A stretch of 58,542 bases of DNA from Candidatus Hodarchaeum mangrovi (GTDB lineage: Archaea > Asgardarchaeota > Heimdallarchaeia > Hodarchaeales > Hodarchaeaceae): NCBI GenBank assembly GCA_016839515.1, contig JAEOUE010000121.1:1-58542 (forward strand), read 5' to 3'. A program made the position numbers and the translations under genes. Shown here piece by piece: positions 8,540 to 57,481 of the stretch (position 1 is the stretch's first letter; every line of letters begins with the position of its first letter). Below the pieces are notes generated by a model that saw only the letters and a program-made list of their open reading frames with translations, ran no database searches and was not told the DNA's origin.

Positions 8540-9088
8540 ATGAAACAAAAATTAGTACTTAAATTAGTCCTCCTAGGTGATCCTGGTGTGGGAAAAACAA
8601 GTTTAATTAGTCAGTTTGTACACTCACGGTTTAGACATTCGTATCAATTGACTGTGGGTCTTGATATTTCTTCAAAACAAGTCAAACTTAAAGATGGAAG
8701 AACTGTTACCCTCTCTATAAATGATATAGGAGGACAAGCAAGATTTGCTGCTATTCGACATATGTTTTTTAAAGGTGCTCATTTAGCTATGTTTGTTTAT
8801 GATGTCACCCGTTCTGAGACTCTAAGCAATATCAAAAGTCCTTGGTATAGTGAATTAATGGAATTTTGCTCACAACCTGATACTACTAAATCTGCAATCA
8901 AAACTATACTCGTTGGAAATAAAGCTGACCTAGAAGATTATCGTATGATTGAAGAAGATGAGGGGGAAGCTTTAGCAAAAGAAATTCAAGCTATAGATCA
9001 TATTTCTGCTTCAGCTAAAGAGAATCATCATGTAAACGAGGCATTCCATAAACTAGCACAAAGTTTTTTTGACGAAATCGAACATTAA
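8540..9088 (+). CDS. Ras/Rab/Arf-like small GTPase
   Basis: 182 residues, start ATG at 8540 with GGTG upstream. All G motifs are visible: P-loop GDPGVGKT (13-20), switch I Thr at 38 (LTVG), G3 as DIGGQ (62-66), G4 NKAD (127-130) and G5 SASAK (156-160). The catalytic glutamine is kept. There is no C-terminal cysteine, so no prenylation signal, as is usual for archaeal small GTPases. The DIGGQ form, with Gly before Gly-Gln, recalls Arf/Sar/Gtr proteins more than Rab. An unknown 290-residue gene follows 32 bases downstream and is a likely partner. Such GTPases are greatly expanded in Asgard archaea; the cellular role here is unknown. Confidence 0.88.
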   Translation: MKQKLVLKLVLLGDPGVGKTSLISQFVHSRFRHSYQLTVGLDISSKQVKLKDGRTVTLSINDIGGQARFAAIRHMFFKGAHLAMFVYDVTRSETLSNIKSPWYSELMEFCSQPDTTKSAIKTILVGNKADLEDYRMIEEDEGEALAKEIQAIDHISASAKENHHVNEAFHKLAQSFFDEIEH

Positions 9089-28243: not shown

Positions 28244-31200
28244 TTATATTTTCCTCTCTCCACAAAAAGGACAACCCGTTGGTAAGAGGTCATTAATATT
28301 TATTAGGGTTCCACATTCAGAACAGAACATTTTAAAGTCATCAGAAGGCTGATTTGATTCTTTGTCAATCCTTAATAAATTTACTCCTTTGGTAAATAAA
28401 TTTTCGCTTTCCAATTCAGATATTTCAGAGGATGATAATTCTAATTCCTCAATCATCGATGCTTCTTGCTTCATATCATTTTTTTCTAGAATGTTAATTC
28501 CTAGCATTTGATCTAAACCAACATGCTTTATTCCAGATTTTTTACTTTTTTGGCTTTTCTTATCTACTTTTATTTGGTGAGGAGTACTCTCTCTGATTTT
28601 CGATTCTTCAATAATTAAATTTTCCTCTTGACTAATTATTGAATCATTAGATACTTCCGTTTCAATTTCAAAAGATGATTCAACATAGTCTAAATCAGAA
28701 AATTCTAATTCTTTTTGTTCTTCAATTATTGCTTGTTGTATTTCCATTGGGTATTTTATCATGCGATCAAATATTCTAGAGGGACCAAAAATCTCTTTTA
28801 TATACTGATTTACATCGATCAGACTTTTTACATCAGCTACAGTCTTAAATGAGTCTATCTCGAAACTCAATCTGGCAATATCATGATTCATCAAAATACG
28901 TTTAATAGTTGAAAAGTCAAAATCAAAGACTTGCTTTGGAATGACACGATTTCCTTTTATATTAAGCATCTGAACTCTTGTACCTAGATCAACGGAAAAA
29001 CCTAAATCAATTAGTATCTTCGCTGCGTCTACTTGTGGTAATTTAGATTTATAGTCTGTTAATGATTTGTTAATGGCTTTGGGTTTTACTAAATAAGAGA
29101 TATCAATTTCTCCATTAGTTATTTCAGAATGAATACGATCAGAAACCTTATTTGCTTCTTGATATAGTTGAGAAAGACTCAGAGGAGAATCAGGATTATA
29201 ATTCTCTAAATATGCCCTAATAATTTCTTCTTGAAAGTATTTTTGTAATTCTGAAAAGTCAGCTCGTTTTGACTCTAGTCCAGTAAGCTCCTTTTCTTCC
29301 CAACTCTTATTATCTTTATCGTAATTATAAACAATATACTTCTTTTTTCCCATGACAAATTGAAAATCATAGGGACCATCCTGCTCAAATCCTATAAGCG
29401 AATTACTTGTTCTTTTGATTGTTTTACCGTCATTTATCCAATAATTATCATTTTGTGAGACGCATTTAACTTTACTATTAAGAATACTATCAATTAGGTT
29501 AATTTCCATGTTTAAAATTTCCTTTTTACCTCCTGATGGATATGAAACTGAAACAGGAAAATCATGGGGAAAATCTTTTGGTATCCAGAGCCATATACCA
29601 TCTGTGTCTAATTCAGTCACCAAACCTATTTTTTCTAATTCTTCTGCTGCCCAATGAATTAAATCTGCAGATAACTTCGTAGTTATTCCTGCACATGGGG
29701 TACTGGCGTTTCTAACTCCAGCCTTCATTCCTAAAAGACCATAAATACTATTAAGAGGTACTTTCATTCCTAATTGTGTACTATCATGGAATTTCTGTTG
29801 ACGAATTAATTCAGCGGGAACTTCTTGATTTAAAGTATTTCTGTGAGTTATTATAGAGTAAAGTCTTTTAGCTTCAACCTTATGACGAACTCTTTTTTCA
29901 AAAAACTCATCCATTATTCGAGCAACAAAATTGTACGATTTTTGACATACTCGAGAATAAACAGAGAGAAGTACTGTTATATTTTTCTTCCGAACATCAA
30001 CACTCATGAAAATTTTCTGTGGTAAGGTAATACTAGCTGGTAAATCGTCAAAAATATCAAAATGATTTTGATCCAAAGTTGCAATAATTTGTGCTCCCTC
30101 GATCGAATCCCGAATCCATTTTTGGAGTACTGAATAAGGATCTTTCGTCATTATGGATCCAAGATAAGTTTTATTTAGGGGAACTTTTCTAATTTTATTT
30201 CTTTTTATTTTATAAGCTTCAGTAGTGACCCCATCATTCGTGAAAATTTCCTGTGACCGTGTTATTCCATTTAATAATGGTTCATATTTTTTACATTTAA
30301 CTTCATCTTGATTCCTACATTTGGAGGGATCACATGGCCCCGAACTCACTTGTTTGTGACGACATGGACGAAGAGCAGTTAGTTTAACGACCCAATCCTT
30401 TTCAATAAAGCAGCTTTTGTCCGATTCATAATGTTCACACCTACCACAACGACTAAGTGGAATAATAGCTGATGGTTGAAGCTTGTATTGCCGGATTTGT
30501 GAGGGATACATTGATGTAACGTCTACATGAATCCCCTTTAGTTGAGTTTCATCTTTTAACTCACTGATTTTATTGAGTTTGTCAATAACATCATTAATTG
30601 TCTCATTTTCTCCGAAAATCTGGAATTTTGATAAATCTTCAAGAATATTACTAACAAGAGATAAAGACCCCTTGAGAGCATCACTAGATATACCATTTCG
30701 TAAAAATTCTCTTTCTACTTCATGTAAAATATAGGGTGAATTAGTAGAAAGATCTATTCCATCTAATTCTATTCGTGTTCCAAGATCTTGAAGAACCCTC
30801 TTGTCGAATTCCTCTTTGATAATTTTTTTTAGATAATTTTCACTTTCATTTCTAATTATTTGTGGTAATAACTCTTTTAAATCATCTAATGCCTTTTTAT
30901 TTGGATTGTATTTATAAAAAAGATCACTTCGCCAGATACCAGGTCTTTTAGCTTCTACTAGCCCTCCAGTATATGCCAATGATTTTACATTTATATTTGA
31001 GGAGAAATTATCAATGGATTCCTTTTCAATACGTCTTTTGGACACTATATTATTAATAAAGCCCTCTGCATCAATTAATAGGTCATCTAGAGACCCTGCT
31101 CTACGTGTAAGTATCTCACTTGAGGGTACGGGAAACATTTGACCTATTGAAATGAAAAAATCGAGTACAATTTCTCGTACATACTTCCAAGTAATTAAAC

Positions 31201-32566
31201 CATCACAACTAGCATATGCTGCTGCATTTACTGGATCGTCTTTAATAGCAAATAATGCTTCTCTTCCTATTGGAATAATTTTGAGTTTTTTTTCTACACT
31301 TGGTTTTAAACCTAGATCTTTTTTGGGAAGATAACTATATTTTTCATTGAAAAGATAAGCATCGAGGTGGATCACTCCTCCTCCTTTGACATGATCAATA
31401 CTCCCAGGAGAATATCGTTGTTCAGTTGTTTCCAGATGCTTAGACTTACTTCCTTTGTATTTTATAATAAACCCTGTCTCTTTTTCCCATGAAAATCCAT
31501 GTCTTTGCGATCTGTATGCAAGGAATGGAATATCAAATTGACTACCAAAAAAATCAGCGATTACATCTGGTTTATAATCTATTAAAAATTTATAAAAAAT
31601 TTGTAGAAGTTCTTTCTCATTCCTTGAGATATAAACTTTAACAGTGTGTCTTTCTATAATATCTTTAGGTGATTTTAGAGAATCTAAATAAATCCAGTCA
31701 ATCCATGGTTTGGAATGTTCATCATCATTCTTCCTTATAAGAATCTCCATATCCTGCATATCTTTGGCTTCAACCTCCTCAGAATTAATTATTAATAAAT
31801 TTTTATAACCTGTAAACAGTGATATCATGGTTATCGAATCTTTTTCGGGATTTGGATCTCTAGTTTGCTCAAAAACTGTTTCAATATCGAAAGCAAGAAT
31901 TTTTAAATCGGGTGGTGCTTTGTTTGGAATCAATTCTAAATTCTGAATTTCACAATTTCGTATTTGAGCTTTGTACCAATATCCTACATGTAGTTGATGA
32001 TCAATTGCCGTTCGGTGATGAAAAAGAACATCAGCTTCTCTCCACTCTACAACTCCTAGGATTTCTTCGCAATTTTTTCTTAATTCAGGTACGGATCCAG
32101 GATGATTTACGGTTATTTTTAAAAAAAATTTCTTACGTAAAAAAGTTAAATCTGCAGCATCATAACTAAGCTGATTCTCAATTTTTGTGACACGATATCC
32201 TCCAATGTTTTGAATTTGAGTTATAATGTTCCCTATTTCGTATTTACTTAAATCATCACGAAGTAGTAGATAAAAATACGGATCGTGACGTAAAAAGGCT
32301 TTATGTTTTTCATGGTTTTCATCTAGGAAATACACTTGAACACCATTGACTCTTTTTGAGCGACGTCGATACTCATTCTCATAATCAGGAGATTCAAGAG
32401 TATTATCATCTAAATGATTCGTTTCATCATCCTTACTATCAGTTTCATAATCTAAAATGAAAATTAAGAATTCTCCTCTTTCTTTATTAGTATAGGAAGC
32501 GAACCAAGAACGATATCCGAGATTTGAAGTTATTTTAATATCTAAAGTTGACATTATATCGACCAT
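28244..32566 (-). CDS. Family B DNA polymerase, Pol epsilon-like catalytic subunit
   Basis: 1440 residues. Replicative-type polymerase with 3'-5' exonuclease. Exo I is AFDIET (Asp227, Glu229), Exo III YASCDG; polymerase motif A DVTSMYPS (Asp682), motif B NSIYGLLG (about 935) and motif C ELDTDGIW (Asp987, Asp989). Several features are those of eukaryotic Pol epsilon: DTDGIW instead of DTDS, LQPSAI after motif A, an IPxSSEILTRRAGSL block after Exo III, and C707-x2-C710-x8-C719 placed 25 residues after the motif A Asp, as in the Fe-S site of yeast Pol2. A further Cys cluster (735-758) and a C-terminal zinc ribbon (CSECG...CPFCG) follow an acidic, low-complexity linker. No Shine-Dalgarno site is seen; start could be Met5. 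Confidence 0.9.
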   Translation of the reverse strand: MVDIMSTLDIKITSNLGYRSWFASYTNKERGEFLIFILDYETDSKDDETNHLDDNTLESPDYENEYRRRSKRVNGVQVYFLDENHEKHKAFLRHDPYFYLLLRDDLSKYEIGNIITQIQNIGGYRVTKIENQLSYDAADLTFLRKKFFLKITVNHPGSVPELRKNCEEILGVVEWREADVLFHHRTAIDHQLHVGYWYKAQIRNCEIQNLELIPNKAPPDLKILAFDIETVFEQTRDPNPEKDSITMISLFTGYKNLLIINSEEVEAKDMQDMEILIRKNDDEHSKPWIDWIYLDSLKSPKDIIERHTVKVYISRNEKELLQIFYKFLIDYKPDVIADFFGSQFDIPFLAYRSQRHGFSWEKETGFIIKYKGSKSKHLETTEQRYSPGSIDHVKGGGVIHLDAYLFNEKYSYLPKKDLGLKPSVEKKLKIIPIGREALFAIKDDPVNAAAYASCDGLITWKYVREIVLDFFISIGQMFPVPSSEILTRRAGSLDDLLIDAEGFINNIVSKRRIEKESIDNFSSNINVKSLAYTGGLVEAKRPGIWRSDLFYKYNPNKKALDDLKELLPQIIRNESENYLKKIIKEEFDKRVLQDLGTRIELDGIDLSTNSPYILHEVEREFLRNGISSDALKGSLSLVSNILEDLSKFQIFGENETINDVIDKLNKISELKDETQLKGIHVDVTSMYPSQIRQYKLQPSAIIPLSRCGRCEHYESDKSCFIEKDWVVKLTALRPCRHKQVSSGPCDPSKCRNQDEVKCKKYEPLLNGITRSQEIFTNDGVTTEAYKIKRNKIRKVPLNKTYLGSIMTKDPYSVLQKWIRDSIEGAQIIATLDQNHFDIFDDLPASITLPQKIFMSVDVRKKNITVLLSVYSRVCQKSYNFVARIMDEFFEKRVRHKVEAKRLYSIITHRNTLNQEVPAELIRQQKFHDSTQLGMKVPLNSIYGLLGMKAGVRNASTPCAGITTKLSADLIHWAAEELEKIGLVTELDTDGIWLWIPKDFPHDFPVSVSYPSGGKKEILNMEINLIDSILNSKVKCVSQNDNYWINDGKTIKRTSNSLIGFEQDGPYDFQFVMGKKKYIVYNYDKDNKSWEEKELTGLESKRADFSELQKYFQEEIIRAYLENYNPDSPLSLSQLYQEANKVSDRIHSEITNGEIDISYLVKPKAINKSLTDYKSKLPQVDAAKILIDLGFSVDLGTRVQMLNIKGNRVIPKQVFDFDFSTIKRILMNHDIARLSFEIDSFKTVADVKSLIDVNQYIKEIFGPSRIFDRMIKYPMEIQQAIIEEQKELEFSDLDYVESSFEIETEVSNDSIISQEENLIIEESKIRESTPHQIKVDKKSQKSKKSGIKHVGLDQMLGINILEKNDMKQEASMIEELELSSSEISELESENLFTKGVNLLRIDKESNQPSDDFKMFCSECGTLININDLLPTGCPFCGERKI

Positions 32567-33813: not shown

Positions 33814-36282
33814 TTATCTTTTTGCTTTTTCTAAACGATTCTGTACCATTTTATTAAAATCAATAAGTAAATCTGAGACAATATTATTTTCAATATTTAA
33901 AATTTCATTCAATTTAAAACTAAGTTTCCAAACTGGGGAAGTTTCATTGATTTTAATTATAGGTTCAATTGGATATAGGAAGATGTCATTGAACAGTTTA
34001 TTAATTCTTGGATCTTGATTTAATACGCTAAGTACTTTGATGGGAATTTTAAGAAGACCATACTCATACACCTTAATATCTAATCCCCCTTCTCCAAGAT
34101 TAACTCGCCCAAGCAATTCTAATTGTATAAAGGTAAAAATTGAATTAAGATATAGAAATAATATCTGATAATTCGTTTTAAAGTCTTTTTGTAACCTGAT
34201 ACCATAAAATCGAGCATCAAAATAAAGGTTTAAAGGATTATTAAAGAATATAAACCTATTATTGATGGTCATCAAACACAAAAAATCAAAAGTATTATTA
34301 TTAAAAGAAGGTAGCTCAAACCAAGAACTACGAGTCTTACATGTTGATCTCTCGTAATAAGGTTTTCCATTAATAGGTTTCCATGATTCACCCCATTTTA
34401 TGTATTCTAAGATACCAGACTTAAGTAATAATCCATTATTTACTAGAAGAACAACGAATTGAGTATCTTTTTCTAATATGTTAATGAAATGGAGGTTTTT
34501 TGGGGATTTAATTAGGTAATTAGGAATCCATTTAATACCCTCTGGATCGGTAAATGAAATCTCCCAGTTATAATTGTTAGATTTCTTTATTGGATGCATC
34601 CAATATTCCTTTTCAATTACAAAATTTGGTGAATTTGATCCTAATTGTTCGACAAATAATTCTATGGTTTGATCATCTTTGACGGTTAAAATCAGATCTC
34701 CATTATTTGGATTCCATTCAGATCGAAAGTATTTATTAGAAAAACCTGGTTTACCTAAATAAAAGAAGTCATTAGCTCCAGTAGTAAAACCTCTTTTTAA
34801 CACAGAAATTTCTGAAAGTTCCACATTCCCTAAATCGAGAATTTTATGGAATAAATAATAATTATAGGGGGCTCTAAAATACTTTCCCCATTTATTATCA
34901 TTCATTAGTATTCTAGATTTTATAACATTTGATTCAATAGTCTTATCTCTTTTATTTAGGTTTTCTAATAAAGATTTATCTGTGAATAAAGTTTTTAATC
35001 CAGCTTCACCAATTATAGAAGTAAATTGAATATCATATATTATACTAGGAATTGTTGGATTACACCTTTTCAGTGAAACAATTACTGTATTTACATCAAC
35101 TGAGGGAATTAATCTCTCATACTCACTTATTACCAAAGATTTAATCTGATAAAATCTTAGAAGAAAATTCTGTATCATTCGTCCATAATCAACATCTAAC
35201 CATGAATTAGGGATAATAACACCCATTGTATCATCTGTTTTTAGAAAAATCGTTGCATGAATTATAAAATATATATAAAAACTGATTCTCTTTGATAATA
35301 GATTAAAACTGGCAGAATAATCCAATGTCTGAAGATCTTGTTTAATTGTGTTTATTACAGCAGATTTATAGTCTTTTGGGATTTTTTCATGTCTTGTGTA
35401 AGGAGGATTCATCAGTATAGTAGTTTTATGAAATTTTAAATAAGATAAAACGTTTTTTGGAGTGCATTTAAAGAAGTCTGTTCTAATAATTTGTACATCC
35501 ACATTTTTTGAATTTTTTAAGCTCAATCGGAAATTTAATGCACTCTCTGCAATATCTGCTAGGAACTCATCATTCTCGATTCCCAGTAATATAACCTTGT
35601 TTGATTGAGAAATAATCTGTTCTAATGCAGTTAATAAGAGTATACCCGAGCCACAACAAGGATCTATAATTTGAGACGAATTTTTTATAATATTTTCTTG
35701 ACATAAGAATCTAGAAACATTTAATGGTGTAAAAACTTGTCCAGTAGTCTGTTTACGATAATCAGGTATAAAATTGTCCACTAAATATGGCAAAACTAAA
35801 CTATCTATTTCTTCTTTTCCTATTCGTTTTAAATATTTATTAATTTCCAAAAGTATTTTAAAATCAGATAATAGATAACTTATAACTTTATATAAGGCGA
35901 ACTCAGGTGCTAAAATGGTAAAATATGTACTTTCATCGTAAATACTTGACCATATATTTGTTAAATAAGTTGAAAAGCTAGAAAAATCCTTTATCGAAAT
36001 CATATATGTCAAATCTGAAGAGATTTTATGAAACTCAGATGAAGACATTGACTTCATTCGTAGAATAGTTAGTTTATCAAATAAATATACAGTTATCAAT
36101 CTTGATAAATTATAAAGAGAGAAATCTTCTTTGTTGTAACAAACATTCCATTTTAATTGGTTAAGAACAGATTGAATGGTCTTTTGCCCATTAACAGACG
36201 TTAAAGTTTTCTTAAGAATAATCTGAATCCTAGAAATAATTACTGACTCAAATTCTAAATACTTACTTACCAGAGAGTTCAT
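33814..36282 (-). CDS. Orphan adenine-specific DNA methyltransferase, Eco57I/type IIG-like
   Basis: 822 residues. Methylates adenine N6 in a specific DNA site using S-adenosylmethionine. The N-terminal 180 residues are helical with no visible PD-(D/E)xK nuclease. Next come GQVFTPLNVSRF, motif I DPCCGSG (Asp207) and motif IV NPPY (Asn292), as in Eco57I-like and type I M-subunit enzymes. The C-terminal 350 residues, starting near KRGFTTGANDFFYLG, look like a target-recognition region. No restriction gene, BREX or DISARM partner lies next to it. Its base content seems even more AT-rich than its neighbours, which fits transfer. A nuclease-less, solitary methylase is the best reading; an in-trans nuclease outside the window is possible. 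Confidence 0.8.
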   Translation of the reverse strand: MNSLVSKYLEFESVIISRIQIILKKTLTSVNGQKTIQSVLNQLKWNVCYNKEDFSLYNLSRLITVYLFDKLTILRMKSMSSSEFHKISSDLTYMISIKDFSSFSTYLTNIWSSIYDESTYFTILAPEFALYKVISYLLSDFKILLEINKYLKRIGKEEIDSLVLPYLVDNFIPDYRKQTTGQVFTPLNVSRFLCQENIIKNSSQIIDPCCGSGILLLTALEQIISQSNKVILLGIENDEFLADIAESALNFRLSLKNSKNVDVQIIRTDFFKCTPKNVLSYLKFHKTTILMNPPYTRHEKIPKDYKSAVINTIKQDLQTLDYSASFNLLSKRISFYIYFIIHATIFLKTDDTMGVIIPNSWLDVDYGRMIQNFLLRFYQIKSLVISEYERLIPSVDVNTVIVSLKRCNPTIPSIIYDIQFTSIIGEAGLKTLFTDKSLLENLNKRDKTIESNVIKSRILMNDNKWGKYFRAPYNYYLFHKILDLGNVELSEISVLKRGFTTGANDFFYLGKPGFSNKYFRSEWNPNNGDLILTVKDDQTIELFVEQLGSNSPNFVIEKEYWMHPIKKSNNYNWEISFTDPEGIKWIPNYLIKSPKNLHFINILEKDTQFVVLLVNNGLLLKSGILEYIKWGESWKPINGKPYYERSTCKTRSSWFELPSFNNNTFDFLCLMTINNRFIFFNNPLNLYFDARFYGIRLQKDFKTNYQILFLYLNSIFTFIQLELLGRVNLGEGGLDIKVYEYGLLKIPIKVLSVLNQDPRINKLFNDIFLYPIEPIIKINETSPVWKLSFKLNEILNIENNIVSDLLIDFNKMVQNRLEKAKR

Positions 36283-36373: not shown

Positions 36374-37132
36374 TTAATTATTAAAAAAATTATCTAAAGG
36401 AATTATTTTAGGAACGACTTGATTATAATACTTACAAAAATCCTTCATCGGGCAAATCAGGCACTTTGGATTTTTTGAAATGCAGATGAGAGCTCCCAAA
36501 TCCATTATGCCTTGATTTATTTCCCAAACATTTTTTTCATCAAGCATATCTTCCGAGAGTCTCCATATTATCTTATTAAAGTTGGAATTCTTTTCTAAAT
36601 CCCATACCCCAAAAACACGACTTAAAACTCGTTCTACATTAACATCAACTATAGCTGCTGTTCGTTCATTTACCCCAAAGGCAAAACTCAAAATTGCACC
36701 TGCAGTATATCGACCTATACCTTTAAGGGAAAGAAGACCCTCTAAAGTTTTCGGAAATTCACCATTAAAGTCATCCATTATCTGTTTAGCAATTCGATGT
36801 AAATATTCCCCTCTTTTTTTGTATCCTAGCTGGTCAGTTAATATTTTAACTTGTGATAAGGGAGCTTGTGATAAGGTTTGTAAAGTAGGAAATTTTTTTA
36901 TAAATTTTAAATAAATTGGAATCACTATTCCAACATTAGTCTGTTGTAACATTATTTCACTAACTAAAATGTGATAAGGATCTCTAGTATGTCTCCAAGG
37001 TAAATCACGACCTTCCTTACTAAACCATGAGATGAGAGATGTTCTAAAACGATCCATTAAAATATTATTATCTTCAGATGAGGAATTCATTGAGTCTTTC
37101 TCAACGGTTTTAATTTTTAATTTATCATTCAT
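36374..37132 (-). CDS. mutY: MutY-like A/G-specific DNA glycosylase
   Basis: 252 residues. Removes adenine mispaired with 8-oxoguanine (or a related mismatched base). The HhH-GPD core is complete: LPWRHTRDPYHILVSEIMLQQT with catalytic Glu59, the hairpin LKGIGRYTAGA (Tyr142), and Asp163 in VDVNVERV. The Fe-S loop is C217-x6-C224-x2-C227-x5-C233. The C-terminal Nudix-like domain that recognises 8-oxoG in bacterial MutY is absent, so an archaeal T/G or A/G mismatch glycosylase of the MIG type is an alternative. The first 25 residues are low-complexity and translation may begin at Met26. It follows no operon partner closely; the methyltransferase gene lies 91 bases downstream. Confidence 0.85.
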   Translation of the reverse strand: MNDKLKIKTVEKDSMNSSSEDNNILMDRFRTSLISWFSKEGRDLPWRHTRDPYHILVSEIMLQQTNVGIVIPIYLKFIKKFPTLQTLSQAPLSQVKILTDQLGYKKRGEYLHRIAKQIMDDFNGEFPKTLEGLLSLKGIGRYTAGAILSFAFGVNERTAAIVDVNVERVLSRVFGVWDLEKNSNFNKIIWRLSEDMLDEKNVWEINQGIMDLGALICISKNPKCLICPMKDFCKYYNQVVPKIIPLDNFFNN

Positions 37133-46640: not shown

Positions 46641-47252
46641 TTGACAGTTTTAAAAATTGTTCTCATTGGTGATGGAGGCGTAGGAAAGACGGCCATTCGG
46701 GAAAGATATCTTGGAAAGGGATTCAAAGCACAATATCTTCTTACTATCGGCGCAGATTTTGCAATGCGTGATGATCAAGCGAGTGGTATGCCAATTAGAT
46801 ATCAAATTTGGGACTTGGCAGGTCAACAGCGGTTTGATGCCGTACGTGAAGTATATTACAAGGGATGTGTTGGAGCGTTATTAGTTTATGATGTAACACG
46901 CCCTGATTCATATTTTAATACCCCAAAATGGATTAATGAGCTATGGACCAATAATGGTCGTGGAAGAGTACCTCTTGTAGTTGTTGCAAATAAGATAGAC
47001 ATGCGTGAACTATCTGATGATACTGTTTCAGAAGAACAAGGAAGAATTTTTACAGATCGATTAAGCAAACTTACTAAGCCTGAAGGATTTATCTGTAACT
47101 ACATTGAAACATCTGCCAAAACAGGAGTGAATATTCAAAAGGCATTTACTTTACTTGGGGATAACATCATGAAATTTGTGGATAATCAAAGAAAAACTAG
47201 CCGTGCTACAAGTAGATTATCTACCACTTCTCCACAACAACGTCAAATCTAA
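46641..47252 (+). CDS. Rab/Ras-like small GTPase
   Basis: 203 residues, TTG start with GAGAGGAA upstream. P-loop GDGGVGKT (10-17), switch I Thr35 (TIG), G3 WDLAGQ (57-62, with catalytic Gln62), G4 NKID (117-120) and G5 ETSAKTG (156-162). Of the four GTPases in the window it is the closest to eukaryotic Rab/Ras proteins. A Ser/Thr/Arg-rich tail of about 25 residues ends the protein and has no cysteine for prenylation. A single gene with a repeat-bearing upstream region; the GT2 gene downstream converges on it with 15 bases between. Confidence 0.92.
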   Translation: MTVLKIVLIGDGGVGKTAIRERYLGKGFKAQYLLTIGADFAMRDDQASGMPIRYQIWDLAGQQRFDAVREVYYKGCVGALLVYDVTRPDSYFNTPKWINELWTNNGRGRVPLVVVANKIDMRELSDDTVSEEQGRIFTDRLSKLTKPEGFICNYIETSAKTGVNIQKAFTLLGDNIMKFVDNQRKTSRATSRLSTTSPQQRQI

Positions 47253-49913: not shown

Positions 49914-50429
49914 TTGTCATTAGATAGCCCATTAAAAATTGTTATTGCAGGAGAAAAGCATGTGGGAAAGTCTTCTCTTGTACATAGGTTTATTTATGAA
50001 CAATTTCCCTTAAAAGGGCTCTATTCCACGGTAGGATTCGATTTTACGCTAAAGACTATCATTCTTGATAACAATACAAATGTAGTTATTCATATTTATG
50101 ATTTTGGAGGAGAACCACGATTTAGGATGATTTTTCCTCAATATGCTTCAGATTGTGATGGACTTATTCTAGCTTTTGATCCAACGCGAGAAGAGACATT
50201 TAATGCTTTGAATGAATGGATTGAAGTTTACGGTCGTAAAGAGGAGACTATTAATTTCTTAATATCAACAAAAGCTGATTTAGGAATTTCTACCTCCCCA
50301 TTAAAAATAAATGACTTCAGAAACAAGCATAATATTTCAAGGTACTTTCAAACAAGTGCTGTGACGGGTGAGAATACGCAAGAATTATTTAAAATAATAG
50401 CAGGAGAAATAATTCAAAAGAAATTATAA
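49914..50429 (+). CDS. Divergent small GTPase (G3 Gln replaced by Glu)
   Basis: 171 residues, TTG start. P-loop GEKHVGKS (13-20), switch I Thr39 (STVG), G3 DFGGEP (63-68) and G5 TSA (147-149). Two departures from the standard set: the catalytic Gln is Glu67, and G4 reads TKAD (119-122) rather than NKxD. The FGGEPRF form recalls Arf/Gtr-like members. No prenylation cysteine. It lies 52 bases after the coiled-coil gene and 13 bases before another GTPase, so the four genes likely form one operon. Guanine binding is expected; hydrolysis rate may be altered. Confidence 0.85.
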   Translation: MSLDSPLKIVIAGEKHVGKSSLVHRFIYEQFPLKGLYSTVGFDFTLKTIILDNNTNVVIHIYDFGGEPRFRMIFPQYASDCDGLILAFDPTREETFNALNEWIEVYGRKEETINFLISTKADLGISTSPLKINDFRNKHNISRYFQTSAVTGENTQELFKIIAGEIIQKKL

Positions 50430-50442
50430 AAACTAAGTTATC

Positions 50443-51021
50443 ATGGGACAGGTTTTTCGAATGGGTGAATCAAAGTTCTTTGTAGACTCGAATATTCTAA
50501 CTGTAAAAGTCATTGTAGCTGGACCTGGAGGGGTAGGTAAAACAACATTACTAAAACGCTATGAAACAAATAATTACATCCCTGCAATTTCAACAATAGG
50601 GATTAACTTCCTAGTAAGAGATATTGAAGTAGGGGATTCAATTTTACGTATAGCTTATTGGGATTATGCAGGAGAGGATAGATTCAAAATATTGTTTCCA
50701 GGTTATTGTCAAGGTTCATCGGGTGCAATATTAGCATTTGATACCTCTCGAATGCAAACTTTATCAGAACTCCCTGAATGGTTAAAAGTGATCCGAACAC
50801 ATAATGATCCAGAAATCCCTATAATCCTGCTAGGAAATAAGATCGATGCAATTTCCGAGGAAAAAAGGGATTTAGCTAGAGAATCTGCAAATATCTTTGC
50901 TAAAGAATTTCAATTATCAGGATATTATTTCTGTTCTGCAAAAGAAGGAGATGGTATTGAAGCTCCCTTCTCTCACCTAGGTATATTAATAAGTGAAAGA
51001 AATAAAAAGAGAAGGAAATAA
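50443..51021 (+). CDS. Divergent small GTPase, second of a pair (G3 Gln replaced by Glu)
   Basis: 192 residues from the ATG at 50443; Met7 at 50461 is possible. P-loop GPGGVGKT (27-34), switch I Thr51 (STIG), G3 WDYAGE (73-78, Glu78 in place of the catalytic Gln), G4 NKID (132-135) and G5 CSAK (164-167). An extra 20 N-terminal residues precede the first strand, and the tail is basic (RNKKRRK) without cysteine, which could bind acidic lipids. It follows the other divergent GTPase by 13 bases. Paired, unequal GTPases recall Rag/Gtr-type heterodimers, but that is only an analogy. Confidence 0.87.
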   Translation: MGQVFRMGESKFFVDSNILTVKVIVAGPGGVGKTTLLKRYETNNYIPAISTIGINFLVRDIEVGDSILRIAYWDYAGEDRFKILFPGYCQGSSGAILAFDTSRMQTLSELPEWLKVIRTHNDPEIPIILLGNKIDAISEEKRDLARESANIFAKEFQLSGYYFCSAKEGDGIEAPFSHLGILISERNKKRRK

Positions 51022-53017: not shown

Positions 53018-56000
53018 TTGGTTCATATTAAAGAAATACGTATGACTGGATGGAAAAGTTATGGCTCGGGTACAGTCCGAATGCCTTTAGCTAAAGGATT
53101 TACTGTCATAGTAGGACCAAATGGGAGTGGTAAATCTAATTCAATTGATGGGGTAAATTTCTGTTTAGGAACCCTTTCCACTAAGAGTATGCGAGCAGAA
53201 AAAATGGTAGGATTAATTTATAATGGAATTGGCGGACAGAAACCTGCAGAAAGAGCCAATGTTGAAATTGTTTTTGATAATTCAGATTATGCTATTCCTC
53301 TAAAGGAAGCAGAAGTAATTGTGAGTAGAGAATTAAAGCGAAACGGTTCAACAACATATCGTTTGAATGGAAAAAGAACAACACGAACTGATATTCTTGA
53401 TAAATTGCGTATTGCAGGTATTGATGTTATTAATAGTTATAATATAATCGCCCAAGGGCAAGTAGGGGAAATAGTTGGGATGAATCCGATCCAAAGACGC
53501 CAGCTAATGGAAAACTTAGCTGGTGTTGGTCAATTTGATGAAAAGAAAAAATCAGCACTTTCAGAACTTGATGAAGCTAATAGAAGAATGGATGAGCTTC
53601 AATTATTAGTGAATGAGGTCTCGAAACGAGTTGATTCCCTTCGCAGGGAAAAAGATGATGCTGAGCGATGGACTTTATTAGATCAAGAAGTGAATCAACT
53701 CCGAGCATTATTAATATCATACAATTTTCACAATTTCACAGAGAAAATTTCTACTTTTGATGAAGAAATAACAAAAATTAGATCAGAACAAGATTCTCTC
53801 ATCAATGAACGAGACGAAAAAAGTATTAAGATCGATGAGGTTACCCTAAAAATTCGTGAATTAGAGAATCAGCTTATTCAACTAGAGACTGAAATTAAAG
53901 AAATAAGAACCTCCTCTGAAGAGAAGAATATTGAAAAAACAAAAGTTGAAGAAAAGATTGAATATAATAAAAAAACAATAAACTCTAATGAGAATAGAAT
54001 AACTCAACTAACAACACGAATAGAGCAAATCCAAGAAAAACGTGAGGAGGATATCCAAACAAAAGATAAACTCGAAGAAGCAAAAAAAGAACTTTTAATA
54101 AAAATTGAAGAGATTAAAGAAGATAAGAAAACAATAGAAAATGAATTAGAAGAAAAAAATCAACAATATGATGAAATTAAAAATGAATTTGATGATACAG
54201 AAAGAAGATATAAAGTAGAAAATGATCGTTTAACAAAAACACAGGTTCAATTTGAAGTATCTCAAAATATGGTTACTGCATTTGAAAATAATGTGAAAGA
54301 ATATGAAAAACGAAAGGATGAGATGAACGAGCAAATTTCAGCTTCTAAAGAAAAGTCAATTAACCTACAAGAATTAATAAACGATGAATCTAGGCAGCTT
54401 GAGGAAGCAAAGAGTAAAATAGGAGATGTAGAAGAAAAAAAACAAAATATTGAATCTCGTATCCAAGATTTAGAGATTCAAAACAGAGAATTAAATGATA
54501 AGTATTTAGTTCAAAAAGCACGAATAGAAACAATTTCATCATTTTTAAAAGCTGAATCCGGAAAAGAGAATCCAGCGGTTTCATTTATTAATAGCAAAAA
54601 AAATAGTGGAGAACTAACAGGAATTTTAGGGGAATTTCAAAATCTTTCTGTTGGGGGTCAACATCTTCCTTCTGAAGTAGGTCATCTCTCAGATGCTATT
54701 ATTACAGTGTCCATTTCTGATTCCTTACGATGTATCCATCTCTTAAAAGAACAGGCTATTGGAGCTGCAAATTTTATCCCATTAGAAAAGTTTAAACTCA
54801 AATCTGATGAGAAATTTGATAAAATTGTCAATAAAATTAGGGAACAAAATGAAATTGTCTCAAATCTATCTGAAGCAGCTGAAATCTGGAAAAAGAATAA
54901 TCAAACAGTTTCTACTAATGATGGAGATGTTTTTTATTCCAATGGAATTATTTATGGAGGTTTTCACCTTGTTTCTGCTCAGGAATCCGTCGACAAATTA
55001 ACTACAGAGATGGAAACTACAAAAGAAAATTTAAATAATGTTAAACAGAAATTGAAGGAAGAAGAAGAAAACAAAAAACGATTAATACAACTTGAGAAAG
55101 TGATCACGGAGTCAATAAATAAATTAGAGAAAAATATTAGAGATGCTTCTATTGAACTTACTCAGCAGGAAAATGAGGTAAAATTATACCAAGATAATTT
55201 AGAAAAGATAATTCAGGAATTGACACCTCTCAAAAGCCAATTAGAAGAAAGAATGAAATCAAGAGAAGTACAACGAAATGAAATGGAATTTTATGAAAAA
55301 AATCTAGAAAAAATCGCTATTGAAATGACAGAAGTAGAAAAACACCTAGAAGCTGCTGATACACGTCCTATTTTAGAGAAAATGAACCAAGTTGAACAAC
55401 AATTAGGCCAAATACAAGGGAAGCTCACTGGAATTGAATCACGAATTGAAGGATTGATTACAAGAAAAGATGAAAAAGAACAAAGATTAATAGAAACTAA
55501 AGATGAAATAAATAGTGTAGAAATCGAAACAGCTAATCTTAAAGGAGAGATTCAAATACTTGAGGGTCAGTTAACCCAACTTGAAAGTCAATTAGTTAAA
55601 ATTATTGAAAAAGAGGAAGAGGTGTCTACGAAAACAAAGGACGTAAGATCTGACCTTTCAACCCAGAAAAAATATCAAGGACAAATGGTAAAAGATAAGG
55701 AAAAATTAAATGAAAAAATATCAATTTATGAAGAACAGATCACTGATATTAAGCTCCAAAGAGAACGATTTGCAGTAGAACTTGAAAAAATACAAAATGA
55801 ATCTTTAGAAAATAATATAACAATTATAGCAGCAGATTCGGAAGAATTGAAAAATATAAACGAAAGAAAAATCAACAATGACATCAATGGAAAGAGTGAG
55901 GAAAAGAAAAGACTTGAACCAGTCAATATGCGAGCTTTAAAAGAATTTCAAGAAGAAAATGCACGATTTATTGAACTATTAGACCGTAGAGATATTTTAA

Positions 56001-56596
56001 TTGAGGAACGACAAATTATTCTGGATTTTATTGAGGATATCGAGACAGAGAAATATTCAGTCTTCATGAAAGTGTTCAATGGAGTCAATAAACATTTTGG
56101 TTCTATCTTCAACGAACTGTCAGGAGGAAGTGCACGTCTGATATTAGAGAAGGATCCAAAGAAAGGAGAAGATATCTTTGAAGGTGGAATGTTTATTGAA
56201 GCACACCCTGCAGGGAAAAAAGTAGCCTCAATAGAAGCAATGTCAGGAGGAGAAAAAGCTCTAACTGCGTTAGCTTTCATATTCGCTGTTCAAACAGTTG
56301 ATGCGCAGCCATTCTATATATTAGATGAAATTGACGCGGCTTTAGATCCAATGAATGTTCGGAGAGTCGCTAAATTACTTCATAGAATGAGTAGAACGGT
56401 GGGCCAAGATGAAGAAGGAATTAAGAAAACTAAATCATCATCTCCTGGAGCTCAATTCCTTGTAATCAGTCATCGTGATATTTTAATGGCATGGGCAGAT
56501 CGTTTATATGGTTGTACAAATGTTAAGGGACTAAGCTCTGTATTTTCGATTCAAATGAGTGAAGATAAACAACTCGAAAGGGCTGAAAGCTTCTAA
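53018..56596 (+). CDS. smc: Chromosome segregation protein SMC
   Basis: 1192 residues, TTG start with AGAGGT upstream. The ATPase motor of the condensin-like complex that organises and separates chromosomes. N-terminal head with Walker A GPNGSGKS (33-40), a coiled coil (about 170-500), the hinge (about 514-650; GELTGILGEFQNL, then SNGIIYGGFHL), a second coiled coil (about 660-960) and the C-terminal head with the ABC signature SGGEK (1076-1080) and Walker B FYILDEIDAALD (about 1098-1109). Length and order are those of bacterial and archaeal SMC. The scpA-like gene follows 15 bases later, forming an operon. No scpB gene is seen within the window. Confidence 0.95.
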   Translation: MVHIKEIRMTGWKSYGSGTVRMPLAKGFTVIVGPNGSGKSNSIDGVNFCLGTLSTKSMRAEKMVGLIYNGIGGQKPAERANVEIVFDNSDYAIPLKEAEVIVSRELKRNGSTTYRLNGKRTTRTDILDKLRIAGIDVINSYNIIAQGQVGEIVGMNPIQRRQLMENLAGVGQFDEKKKSALSELDEANRRMDELQLLVNEVSKRVDSLRREKDDAERWTLLDQEVNQLRALLISYNFHNFTEKISTFDEEITKIRSEQDSLINERDEKSIKIDEVTLKIRELENQLIQLETEIKEIRTSSEEKNIEKTKVEEKIEYNKKTINSNENRITQLTTRIEQIQEKREEDIQTKDKLEEAKKELLIKIEEIKEDKKTIENELEEKNQQYDEIKNEFDDTERRYKVENDRLTKTQVQFEVSQNMVTAFENNVKEYEKRKDEMNEQISASKEKSINLQELINDESRQLEEAKSKIGDVEEKKQNIESRIQDLEIQNRELNDKYLVQKARIETISSFLKAESGKENPAVSFINSKKNSGELTGILGEFQNLSVGGQHLPSEVGHLSDAIITVSISDSLRCIHLLKEQAIGAANFIPLEKFKLKSDEKFDKIVNKIREQNEIVSNLSEAAEIWKKNNQTVSTNDGDVFYSNGIIYGGFHLVSAQESVDKLTTEMETTKENLNNVKQKLKEEEENKKRLIQLEKVITESINKLEKNIRDASIELTQQENEVKLYQDNLEKIIQELTPLKSQLEERMKSREVQRNEMEFYEKNLEKIAIEMTEVEKHLEAADTRPILEKMNQVEQQLGQIQGKLTGIESRIEGLITRKDEKEQRLIETKDEINSVEIETANLKGEIQILEGQLTQLESQLVKIIEKEEEVSTKTKDVRSDLSTQKKYQGQMVKDKEKLNEKISIYEEQITDIKLQRERFAVELEKIQNESLENNITIIAADSEELKNINERKINNDINGKSEEKKRLEPVNMRALKEFQEENARFIELLDRRDILIEERQIILDFIEDIETEKYSVFMKVFNGVNKHFGSIFNELSGGSARLILEKDPKKGEDIFEGGMFIEAHPAGKKVASIEAMSGGEKALTALAFIFAVQTVDAQPFYILDEIDAALDPMNVRRVAKLLHRMSRTVGQDEEGIKKTKSSSPGAQFLVISHRDILMAWADRLYGCTNVKGLSSVFSIQMSEDKQLERAESF

Positions 56597-56611
56597 AAAG
56601 GAGTTGAGTTC

Positions 56612-57481
56612 ATGAATGAGCCTGAAAACGATCAATCTGAGACTTTTGACGAAGAAGATGATTCTGATGAAGATGACTATATCCGTATGTTCAGTCATTC
56701 AGGCCAATTTTTCTTAGACGAACCTTATGTTTATTTAATAAATCCCGATTTATTTCCCGAGAGAGTAGCCTATATAAAGGATTTTAAATTGAAGGAGATA
56801 CTACCCGAGTTCTATAAAAAACTCCTTGAACAAGGACTTGATTTTCGGATTTTGGGACAATCAATTTATTCTGCTGCCCGAATTCATAAAAAGAAGGTAA
56901 GTATGGCTATTCAATATGAAAAAAAGCAAGAGGAGAAAATTGCTATACGAGCAAAAAGAAGAGAATTTCAATTTAAAATACCCCTTGAGAATTTTGTAAC
57001 ACGAGATTTATTATCCCTTGCAGAGTCTGCAAATCCTGAATCTTTTTATGCAGAGCTCCTTTTAGCTCTTCAAGAAGAGGATGAAAAAAGGAAATTAGAA
57101 AAAATAAAAGAAGAAAAGAAGAAACAAGAGAAAAAAGGAGATGAGAAAGCTCGTCGTCGAAGACTTGAATTAGCAGATTTTGAAAACTTTCAATATGAAC
57201 TTGATTTGGACAGAGTAGCAATTGAAGAGGTCGTGGAAAAAACATTTGAGGTTATCAAGCAAATTGCGAAGAAAGATAAGAACAAAGAAGCTGAATTTTC
57301 TAAAGTTGTAACTCAAATGGAAAAAAAATTCAAATCCGACGAAGAACGACGGTTATCAAGAGCAAGAGTTCTCATCTCCTGTCTATATCTATTCAGAGAT
57401 GAACTAATAACCGCAGAACAAGAACTAAATCCGCCCTATGAGATTTATATCCAAGTCATTAAAGAAAAAAAGAATAAATAA
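56612..57481 (+). CDS. scpA: ScpA-like kleisin
   Basis: 289 residues, ATG with AAGGAG upstream, 15 bases after smc. The kleisin bridges the two SMC heads. After an acidic start (residues 1-25), residues about 45-100 fit the ScpA N-terminal helices (IKDFKLKEILPEFYKKLLEQGLDFRILGQSIYSAARIHKKK). A charged linker of Lys/Glu repeats (about 150-185) follows, and the C-terminal 85 residues fit the winged-helix that touches the SMC head (SRARVLISCLYLFRDELITAEQE). The match is distant but operon position makes the call firm. Confidence 0.8.
   Translation: MNEPENDQSETFDEEDDSDEDDYIRMFSHSGQFFLDEPYVYLINPDLFPERVAYIKDFKLKEILPEFYKKLLEQGLDFRILGQSIYSAARIHKKKVSMAIQYEKKQEEKIAIRAKRREFQFKIPLENFVTRDLLSLAESANPESFYAELLLALQEEDEKRKLEKIKEEKKKQEKKGDEKARRRRLELADFENFQYELDLDRVAIEEVVEKTFEVIKQIAKKDKNKEAEFSKVVTQMEKKFKSDEERRLSRARVLISCLYLFRDELITAEQELNPPYEIYIQVIKEKKNK

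What the first reader, a model, noticed from the sequence alone, without database searches (positions are those of the whole stretch)
28244..32566. Archaeal family B polymerase with Pol epsilon hallmarks, including an Fe-S cysteine motif
Seen: motif C is DTDGIW, LQPSAI follows motif A, a SSEILTRRAGSL block follows Exo III, and C707-x2-C710-x8-C719 begins 25 residues after the motif A aspartate. From memory, yeast Pol2 has C665-x2-C668-x8-C677 at the same offset from D640, with C763 as the fourth ligand of its 4Fe-4S cluster. Archaeal PolB enzymes normally have DTDS or DTDG without this cysteine set. This could be a close archaeal relative of the Pol epsilon catalytic half, with an extra cysteine cluster and zinc ribbon.
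Basis: partly seen in the sequence, partly recalled or inferred. Interest (0 to 1): 0.82.

Follow-up and report, generated by a model that had tools for sequence, protein, structure and literature searches.

The report
Pol epsilon-like polymerase in Hodarchaeal archaeon
This Asgard archaeon carries a DNA polymerase that groups with the active half of the eukaryotic leading-strand polymerase (Pol epsilon) and shares the four cysteines that hold an iron-sulphur cluster there, so it likely holds one too; its ordinary archaeal replicase has lost a key catalytic residue, so this enzyme has likely taken over genome copying.

Summary
Window 28244-32566 (minus strand) encodes a 1440-aa family B polymerase with intact exonuclease and polymerase residues. 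Its best PDB matches are all Pol epsilon (E 1e-59; archaeal PolB 1e-14). It forms one clade with Pol epsilon, apart from Pol delta and the archaeal PolBs sampled; grouping Pol epsilon with delta instead is rejected (p-AU 0.0001). C707/C710/C719/C874 are complete in 63 of 63 Hodarchaeal-type rows that span them. C735/C745/C750/C758 form a second C4 set, absent from Pol epsilon, inside an insert larger than the eukaryotic P-domain and without detectable match to it. A C-terminal C4 ribbon is the third site. The gene is in 13 of 14 genomes of the order and, at E <= 1e-20, in none of 213 other Asgard genomes. In the same 13 genomes PolD's polymerase subunit has lost its first catalytic aspartate; 50 of 50 control sequences read keep both. 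Hodarchaeal Pol epsilon homologues are already published (B10, 2020; Eme 2023). In what I could search, the complete CysX set, the extra C4 set and order-wide PolD inactivation were not described. Metal content and replicative role are inferred.

The parts
28244..32566 (-). ORF, 1440 aa, Pol epsilon-like family B DNA polymerase of the Hodarchaeal type (group 'B10' of Kazlauskas 2020)
32045..32566 (-). N-terminal part, residues 1-174
   Evidence: lies before the exonuclease match; aligned range of the fold comparison starts at residues 8-13 for Pol epsilon chains
31313..32044 (-). 3'-5' exonuclease domain, residues 175-418 (D227, E229, D345; D455 of Exo III lies just after)
   Evidence: Pfam PF03104 E 7e-26; residues intact across the family
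30503..30523 (-). Motif A DVTSMYP, residues 682-688 (V683/M686 as in Pol epsilon; F and L in the archaeal PolB and Pol delta rows)
30446..30448 (-). C707, first ligand of the predicted CysX 4Fe-4S site
   Evidence: 64 of 64 rows; codon checked
30437..30439 (-). C710, second CysX ligand
   Evidence: 64 of 64 rows
30410..30412 (-). C719, third CysX ligand
   Evidence: 64 of 64 rows
29945..29947 (-). C874 (VCQK), fourth CysX ligand, at the position of yeast C763
   Evidence: 63 of 63 rows that reach it; pairwise alignment
29948..30409 (-). Insert between the third and fourth CysX ligands, residues 720-873, in the place of the Pol epsilon P-domain but larger and without detectable match to it
   Evidence: C719-C874 distance median 156 against 84 in eukaryotes; no profile match; no fold match
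30293..30364 (-). Second C4 set C735/C745/C750/C758, predicted metal site of its own
   Evidence: 63 of 64 rows; positions 745 and 750 are gaps in 25 of 25 eukaryotic rows; the one row without the set keeps all four CysX cysteines
29738..29776 (-). Motif B region QLGMKVPLNSIYG, residues 931-943
29591..29611 (-). Motif C LDTDGIW, residues 986-992
   Evidence: same as Pol epsilon (LDTDGIW in 25 of 25)
28784..29914 (-). Pfam DNA_pol_B match, residues 885-1261
28250..28336 (-). C-terminal C4 ribbon, residues 1411-1439 (C1415, C1418, C1432, C1435), predicted zinc site
   Evidence: 49 of the 51 rows with letters there; sub-threshold DUF7130 match

Best explanation
The gene encodes a family B DNA polymerase that forms one clade with the catalytic half of eukaryotic Pol epsilon, is predicted to copy and proofread DNA with a 4Fe-4S cluster held by C707, C710, C719 and C874, and has likely taken over chromosome replication in its order (likely Hodarchaeales), whose PolD has lost the catalytic aspartate D956 in all 13 genomes where its polymerase subunit was found. 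Shown here: the sequence, its place in the tree, intact polymerase (D682, D987, D989) and exonuclease (D227, E229, D345, D455) residues, the complete CysX set, a second C4 set and a C-terminal C4 ribbon, the gene in 13 of 14 genomes of the order with recurrent neighbours, and the changed PolD site. Inferred: that CysX binds 4Fe-4S and braces an insert at its base that helps hold the DNA duplex, as proposed for Pol epsilon; that the second C4 set binds zinc (or a second cluster) and stiffens the enlarged insert; that the C-terminal ribbon docks a partner; and that this enzyme does the bulk of synthesis on at least one strand, with the catalytically dead DP2 and its DP1 kept as a scaffold.
Confidence: 0.68

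Rival explanations
1. The enzyme is related to Pol epsilon but is an auxiliary or repair polymerase; one of the two DTDS-type PolBs of the genome replicates the chromosome, as PolB1 does in archaea without PolD (the PolB1 case is recalled).
For: Two ~860-aa PolBs with YGDTDS motifs in the own genome; PolBs of about this length recur in the order, one of them in G009, where the eps-like gene was not found.
Against: Eps-like enzyme and changed PolD coincide in 13 of 13 genomes, whereas I did not test whether the other PolBs are special to the order; the eps-like enzyme keeps its polymerase and proofreading residues.
Confidence: 0.27
2. The four CysX cysteines bind zinc, not a 4Fe-4S cluster.
For: Sequence cannot tell the metals apart; Fe-S sites can take up zinc in overexpressed protein (recalled, not from a call).
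Against: Spacing and ligand positions equal those of Pol epsilon, where the cluster is seen in the catalytic core (titles of 6h1v and 6qib; PMC8499023 and PMC9581978, passages).
Confidence: 0.15
3. [quoted passage not shown]
For: Not found in the other 213 Asgard genomes searched; long branches on both sides (1.18 and 1.55); argued in PMC12395588 (passage).
Against: The Hodarchaeal-type rows are sister to, not nested in, the Pol epsilon rows sampled; recurrent neighbours and near-universal presence fit long vertical descent inside the order; two IMG/VR scans gave only four distant PolBs at 25-26% identity. These do not decide the direction.
Confidence: 0.4
4. Artefact: eukaryotic contamination or misassembly.
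For: Draft bin with 348 contigs and 6.1% estimated contamination.
Against: One uninterrupted ORF; relatives mostly at 34-87% identity (P0010 is listed at 31% over 7% of the query), those with names being Asgard archaea; single-contig genomes with the same gene; recurrent neighbours.
Confidence: 0.01

Closest known systems
Eukaryotic DNA polymerase epsilon, catalytic half of Pol2/POLE
   Same: Motifs A and C, exonuclease and polymerase residues, complete CysX cysteine set with the same spacings, overall fold, sister place in the tree
   Different: No match to the C-terminal Pol epsilon Pfam domains or to the PF22634 thumb; larger insert with no detectable match to the P-domain; extra C4 set; a single C-terminal C4 ribbon
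Archaeal PolB group B10 (Kazlauskas et al. 2020, PMC7544198)
   Same: The LC_3 protein (P0062) and a B3_Heim locus (L127) fall among the relatives found; glutamate before motif C (E985); one C-terminal metal motif, as that paper describes (passages)
   Different: [quoted passage not shown] here CysX is complete in 63 of 63 spanning rows
Hodarchaeales epsilon polymerase named in Eme et al. 2023 (PMC10307638); Asgard clade near Pol epsilon in PMC12198294
   Same: Same restriction to Hodarchaeales in the first, same tree neighbourhood in the second; that they mean this very family is my reading
   Different: The passages I read give presence and tree place only, no metal sites and no PolD status
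Archaeal PolB1/PolB2/PolB3
   Same: Family B fold and catalytic residues
   Different: F683/L686 in motif A, mostly DTDS in motif C (24 of 31 rows), no complete CysX, other side of the tree

Membership tests
Pol epsilon catalytic subunit (N-terminal, active half) | Groups with Pol epsilon to the exclusion of Pol delta and archaeal PolB | tested here: met
   Pol alpha, Pol zeta and bacterial PolBs were not in the tree
Pol epsilon catalytic subunit (N-terminal, active half) | CysX: four cysteines, C-x2-C-x8-C plus a distant fourth | tested here: met
   63 of 63 rows spanning the site; C874 at the yeast C763 position
Pol epsilon catalytic subunit (N-terminal, active half) | A bound 4Fe-4S cluster | not testable with these tools
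   needs spectroscopy
Pol epsilon catalytic subunit (N-terminal, active half) | P-domain inserted at the CysX base | tested here: inconclusive
   an insert sits at the same place but is larger; no profile match (hhalign probability 0.03) and no fold match; a missing match does not show different folds
Pol epsilon catalytic subunit (N-terminal, active half) | POL2_thumb (PF22634) | tested here: not met
   not among the matches at E <= 1; it rings in P0067 (1.7e-74)
Complete Pol epsilon (Pol2/POLE) | Inactivated C-terminal exonuclease-polymerase module and CysA/CysB CTD | tested here: not met
   1440 aa; PF08490 and PF22912 not among the matches; one C4 ribbon only
Archaeal group B10 | Clusters with the Heimdallarchaeota LC_3 and B3 sequences | tested here: met
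   P0062 (LC_3) in the clade; L127 (B3_Heim) 56% identical in its best segment
Archaeal group B10 | Conserved glutamate at motif C and one C-terminal metal motif | tested here: met
   ELDTDGIW read in the ORF, the position of the glutamate being my reading of the text; C1415/C1418/C1432/C1435; criteria from passages
Archaeal PolB1 or PolB3 | Motif A DF..LYP with archaeal-type motif C and a place among archaeal PolBs | tested here: not met

The most novel reading that the evidence does not exclude
Hodarchaeales keep a living intermediate between the archaeal and the eukaryotic replication fork: an active Pol epsilon-type enzyme with its Fe-S base has taken over DNA synthesis, while PolD survives as a catalytically dead DP2-DP1 scaffold acting in trans, much as the dead C-terminal half of eukaryotic Pol epsilon and its dead DP1-like B subunit tether the active half to the fork. 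The insert on the Fe-S base, with its own C4 site, would be an independently built processivity domain.
Probability: 0.35. Interest if true: 0.88.

Novelty: new variant of a known kind. Interest (0 to 1): 0.64.

Why it matters
Where Pol epsilon and its Fe-S cluster came from is an open question of eukaryogenesis. Two papers seen here treat the cluster or its cysteine motif as unique to Pol epsilon (PMC9581978, passages; PMC7544198, passage). A complete CysX set in a prokaryotic sister group puts the cysteine set before, or at, the split of the two lineages (or its transfer) and gives a simple protein in which to test it. Loss of the PolD catalytic aspartate in the same 13 genomes that hold this enzyme makes it testable in an archaeon whether a Pol epsilon-type enzyme replaced PolD before, or alongside, eukaryotes.

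Tried and rejected

PCNA-binding motif in the C-terminal linker: no conserved QxxL-type motif seen in the 18 rows printed.

The 1288-aa PolB of contig C47 as a relative of the inactivated Pol epsilon half: rejected; its best PDB matches are archaeal PolB (5.8e-27), it reads VDSIW at motif C, and it carries an intein.

Viral origin: two IMG/VR scans gave no close relative; plasmids were not searched. The Lokiarchaeum homologue mentioned in PMC12395588 was not recovered at E <= 1e-20 among 213 non-order genomes, where the listing shows at most two candidates scored per genome; that genome may not be held.

First genome-contig scan found no relative; the second, with alignment A1, found 12 named loci.

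Limits of the tree: 73 rows chosen from what I held (18 of 64 Hodarchaeal-type, 14 of 25 Pol epsilon, 31 of 31 listed archaeal PolB plus two of the own genome, 8 of 120 Pol delta); no Pol alpha, zeta or bacterial group. The first tree was flagged for long branches meeting (own-genome PolBs), and the archaeal PolBs are not one clade there, since delta lies among them. The second tree dropped 12 rows: the two own-genome PolBs, P0096, P0115, P0100, P0101, P0102, P0110, P0111, P0112, P0114 and P0059. Two CysX columns (C710, C874) were among the 747 and 739 columns used; the other six cysteine columns were not. The quick method (SH-aLRT only) was used.

Limits of the PolD control: the 30 loci are the best-scoring ones; the 20 were picked by me from genomes without the exact DNA pattern but with an unsplit match. 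Of 199 non-order genomes with a DP2 catalytic match, 146 hold the exact pattern and 20 more were read; the other 33 were not read.
Full report
What is there. The ORF at 28244-32566 on the minus strand (1440 aa) matches Pfam DNA_pol_B_exo1 (7e-26) and DNA_pol_B (2.7e-15). Exonuclease residues D227, E229, D345, D455 and polymerase residues D682, Y687, K935, N939, D987, D989 are kept in all or all but one of the 64 rows that have letters there, so both activities are predicted to be live.

What it is related to. In one search (120 best of 207) the query finds 64 proteins of its own type (P0001 is the window itself; those with an organism name are called Hodarchaeales, Hodarchaeota, Heimdallarchaeota, Thorarchaeota, Hermodarchaeota or Promethearchaeota), then 25 proteins with the Pol epsilon thumb domain, then archaeal-type PolB far behind. 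In the PDB the first 24 of 60 sequences are Pol epsilon; archaeal-type PolB comes 45 orders of magnitude later in E-value than the best, and Pol delta last. A tree of 73 rows on 747 columns joins the 18 Hodarchaeal-type and 14 Pol epsilon rows with SH-aLRT 100, each group being one clade, with Pol delta and archaeal PolB on the other side. Two of the 747 columns are CysX columns. After leaving out 12 long-branched or near-identical rows the joint clade stays at SH-aLRT 100, and forcing Pol epsilon together with Pol delta costs 158.7 log units, p-AU 0.000123. V683 and M686 of motif A are in 64 of 64 Hodarchaeal-type and 25 of 25 Pol epsilon rows, F and L in 31 of 31 archaeal rows; motif C reads D[TS]DG[IV]W in 57 of the 61 Hodarchaeal-type rows with letters and DTDGIW in 25 of 25 Pol epsilon rows, against DTDS in 24 of 31 archaeal rows and DTDG without W in 7.

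The cysteines. Twelve of the window's cysteine positions are at least 90% conserved in the family and they fall into three fours: C707/C710/C719/C874, C735/C745/C750/C758, and C1415/C1418/C1432/C1435. C874 is present in 63 of 63 rows that reach it and its column is C in 25 of 25 Pol epsilon rows; 24 of 25 Pol epsilon rows show all four in my alignment, the other has N at the first column. The two sets separate in nature: Pol epsilon has the first without the second, and so does one archaeal-type row, P0059. So the second set is predicted to be a metal site of its own. The models give no coordinates here, so distances are not measured.

The insert. C719 and C874 lie a median of 156 residues apart (126-191), against 84 (25-119) in the Pol epsilon rows. 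The insert sits where the Pol epsilon P-domain sits, but I found no profile match for its interior and no fold match for a separate model. Its bracing or processivity role is inferred from position only. PMC9581978 (abstract and passages) proposes that the Pol epsilon cluster governs the P-domain as a gatekeeper and reports that mutating two ligands of the human enzyme abolished template-primer binding; it also notes that in yeast the exonuclease was not affected.

Distribution and surroundings. The gene is in 13 of 14 genomes of the order; the miss, G009, is a 1.4-Mb genome. It is in none of the 213 other Asgard genomes at E <= 1e-20. The 12 named loci found are labelled Hodarchaeota, Heimdallarchaeota or just archaeon, so the order is taken to be Hodarchaeales (inference). 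Of the 12 loci, 9 hold a relative of the adjacent unknown gene (25870), 9 of the TPR gene (23905), 8 of the Eco57I-like methylase and 6 of the MutY-like gene. This fits a chromosomal core gene of the order. Three database proteins carry intein domains, and two genomes have split matches in long frames that look alike.

PolD. The own genome has one DP2 and one DP1 match. Its DP2 reads RNCNGDID where the P. abyssi chain aligns as RNC-x-GD-x-D (the chain's own line is cut off in the output, and RNCDGDED is what 30 control loci read); by my count from the chain coordinates the changed residue is D956. D956 and D958 are the two invariant aspartates shown to be critical (PMC4996933, passage). Over the order: RNCNGDID in 5, RSCNG with both aspartates gone in 5, RNCSGNID in 1, RTANGDID in 1, and no recognisable motif in 1; 13 of 13 have lost the first aspartate and 7 of 13 also the second. 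The Pfam catalytic-domain match also stops at position 204-251 of 299 in the 13, against 299 in the 30 control loci. Controls keep both aspartates: 30 of 30 and 20 of 20; the exact NCDGDED DNA pattern is in 146 of 213 other genomes and 0 of 14 of the order. DP2 is nonetheless kept at 46-54% identity in open frames of 1,108-1,128 aa in the four other members of the genus compared, so it is probably not decaying freely; in the other family it is at 23-27%. DP1 reads PGE[HR]D in 10 of 10 order genomes with a match, where 16 of 20 other loci of the class read PGNHD, two read PGQK[DE] and two gave no result; whether its exonuclease works is open. Four of 14 genomes, both of the other family among them, have no DP1 match.

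What was known. Kazlauskas et al. 2020 (PMC7544198; passages and sections 19 and 20 read) named group B10 from two MAGs, related it to Pol epsilon and saw its C-terminal metal motif. It already linked B10 to inactivation of DP1 in those MAGs, listed lack of active DP2 among the traits of such groups, and noted that another Heimdallarchaeon (AB125) has active DP2 and DP1 and that DP1 of B3 might be active. [quoted passage not shown] Eme et al. 2023 (PMC10307638, one passage) lists the epsilon polymerase as found only in Hodarchaeales. PMC12198294 (passages) puts Pol epsilon near a small Asgard clade. PMC12395588 (passages) argues for lateral transfer. Feng et al. 2025 on Asgard replisomes is cited in PMC12993045 and PMC12770985; I did not find it in one search and have not read it. 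In searches and the passages read I saw no description of CysX in archaea, of the extra C4 set, or of PolD inactivation across the order; the library is partial and supplements could not be opened, so this is a limited claim.

Verdict. A real gene of a known family, ordinary for its order, with features that make it a new variant: a complete Pol epsilon CysX in a prokaryotic sister group, a second C4 set on a different insert, and a PolD that has lost its catalytic aspartate in each of the 13 genomes where both genes were found.

Noticed in passing
L048 (G000:C138), L060-L072: DP2, the PolD polymerase subunit, has lost the first catalytic aspartate in 13 of 13 genomes of the order, and both aspartates in 7 (controls).
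   Followed up: yes
L007, L039-L047: DP1 of the order has GE[HR]D in place of GNHD in its phosphoesterase motif in 10 of 10 genomes with a match; one (G002) has R in place of the histidine.
   Followed up: partly
P0012, P0017, P0027; G004:C130, G006:C117: Inteins in the Pol epsilon-like gene (domains); in three aligned proteins an insertion splits the DTDG of motif C, and two genomes have split matches.
   Followed up: partly
P0059 (1147 aa, 53-kb contig): A divergent family member that keeps the four CysX cysteines but lacks the second C4 set and ends before the C-terminal ribbon; its source organism is unknown.
   Followed up: partly
L058 (G000:C47): A 1288-aa PolB with VDSIW at motif C and an intein, likely the PolB2 type (type name recalled).
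   Followed up: partly
window 36374-37132 (-): HhH-GPD (MutY/EndoIII-type) glycosylase with an EndIII iron-sulphur motif; a relative lies near the polymerase gene in 6 of 12 named loci.
   Followed up: partly
window 33814-36282 (-): Eco57I/N6-methylase-like protein; a relative lies near the polymerase gene in 8 of 12 named loci.
   Followed up: partly
window 8540-9088, 46641-47252, 49914-50429, 50443-51021: Four Ras/Rab-like small GTPases by eye, as is common in Asgard archaea (recalled).
   Followed up: no
window 53018-57481: SMC-like ATPase followed by a protein that looks like an ScpA-type partner (by eye).
   Followed up: no
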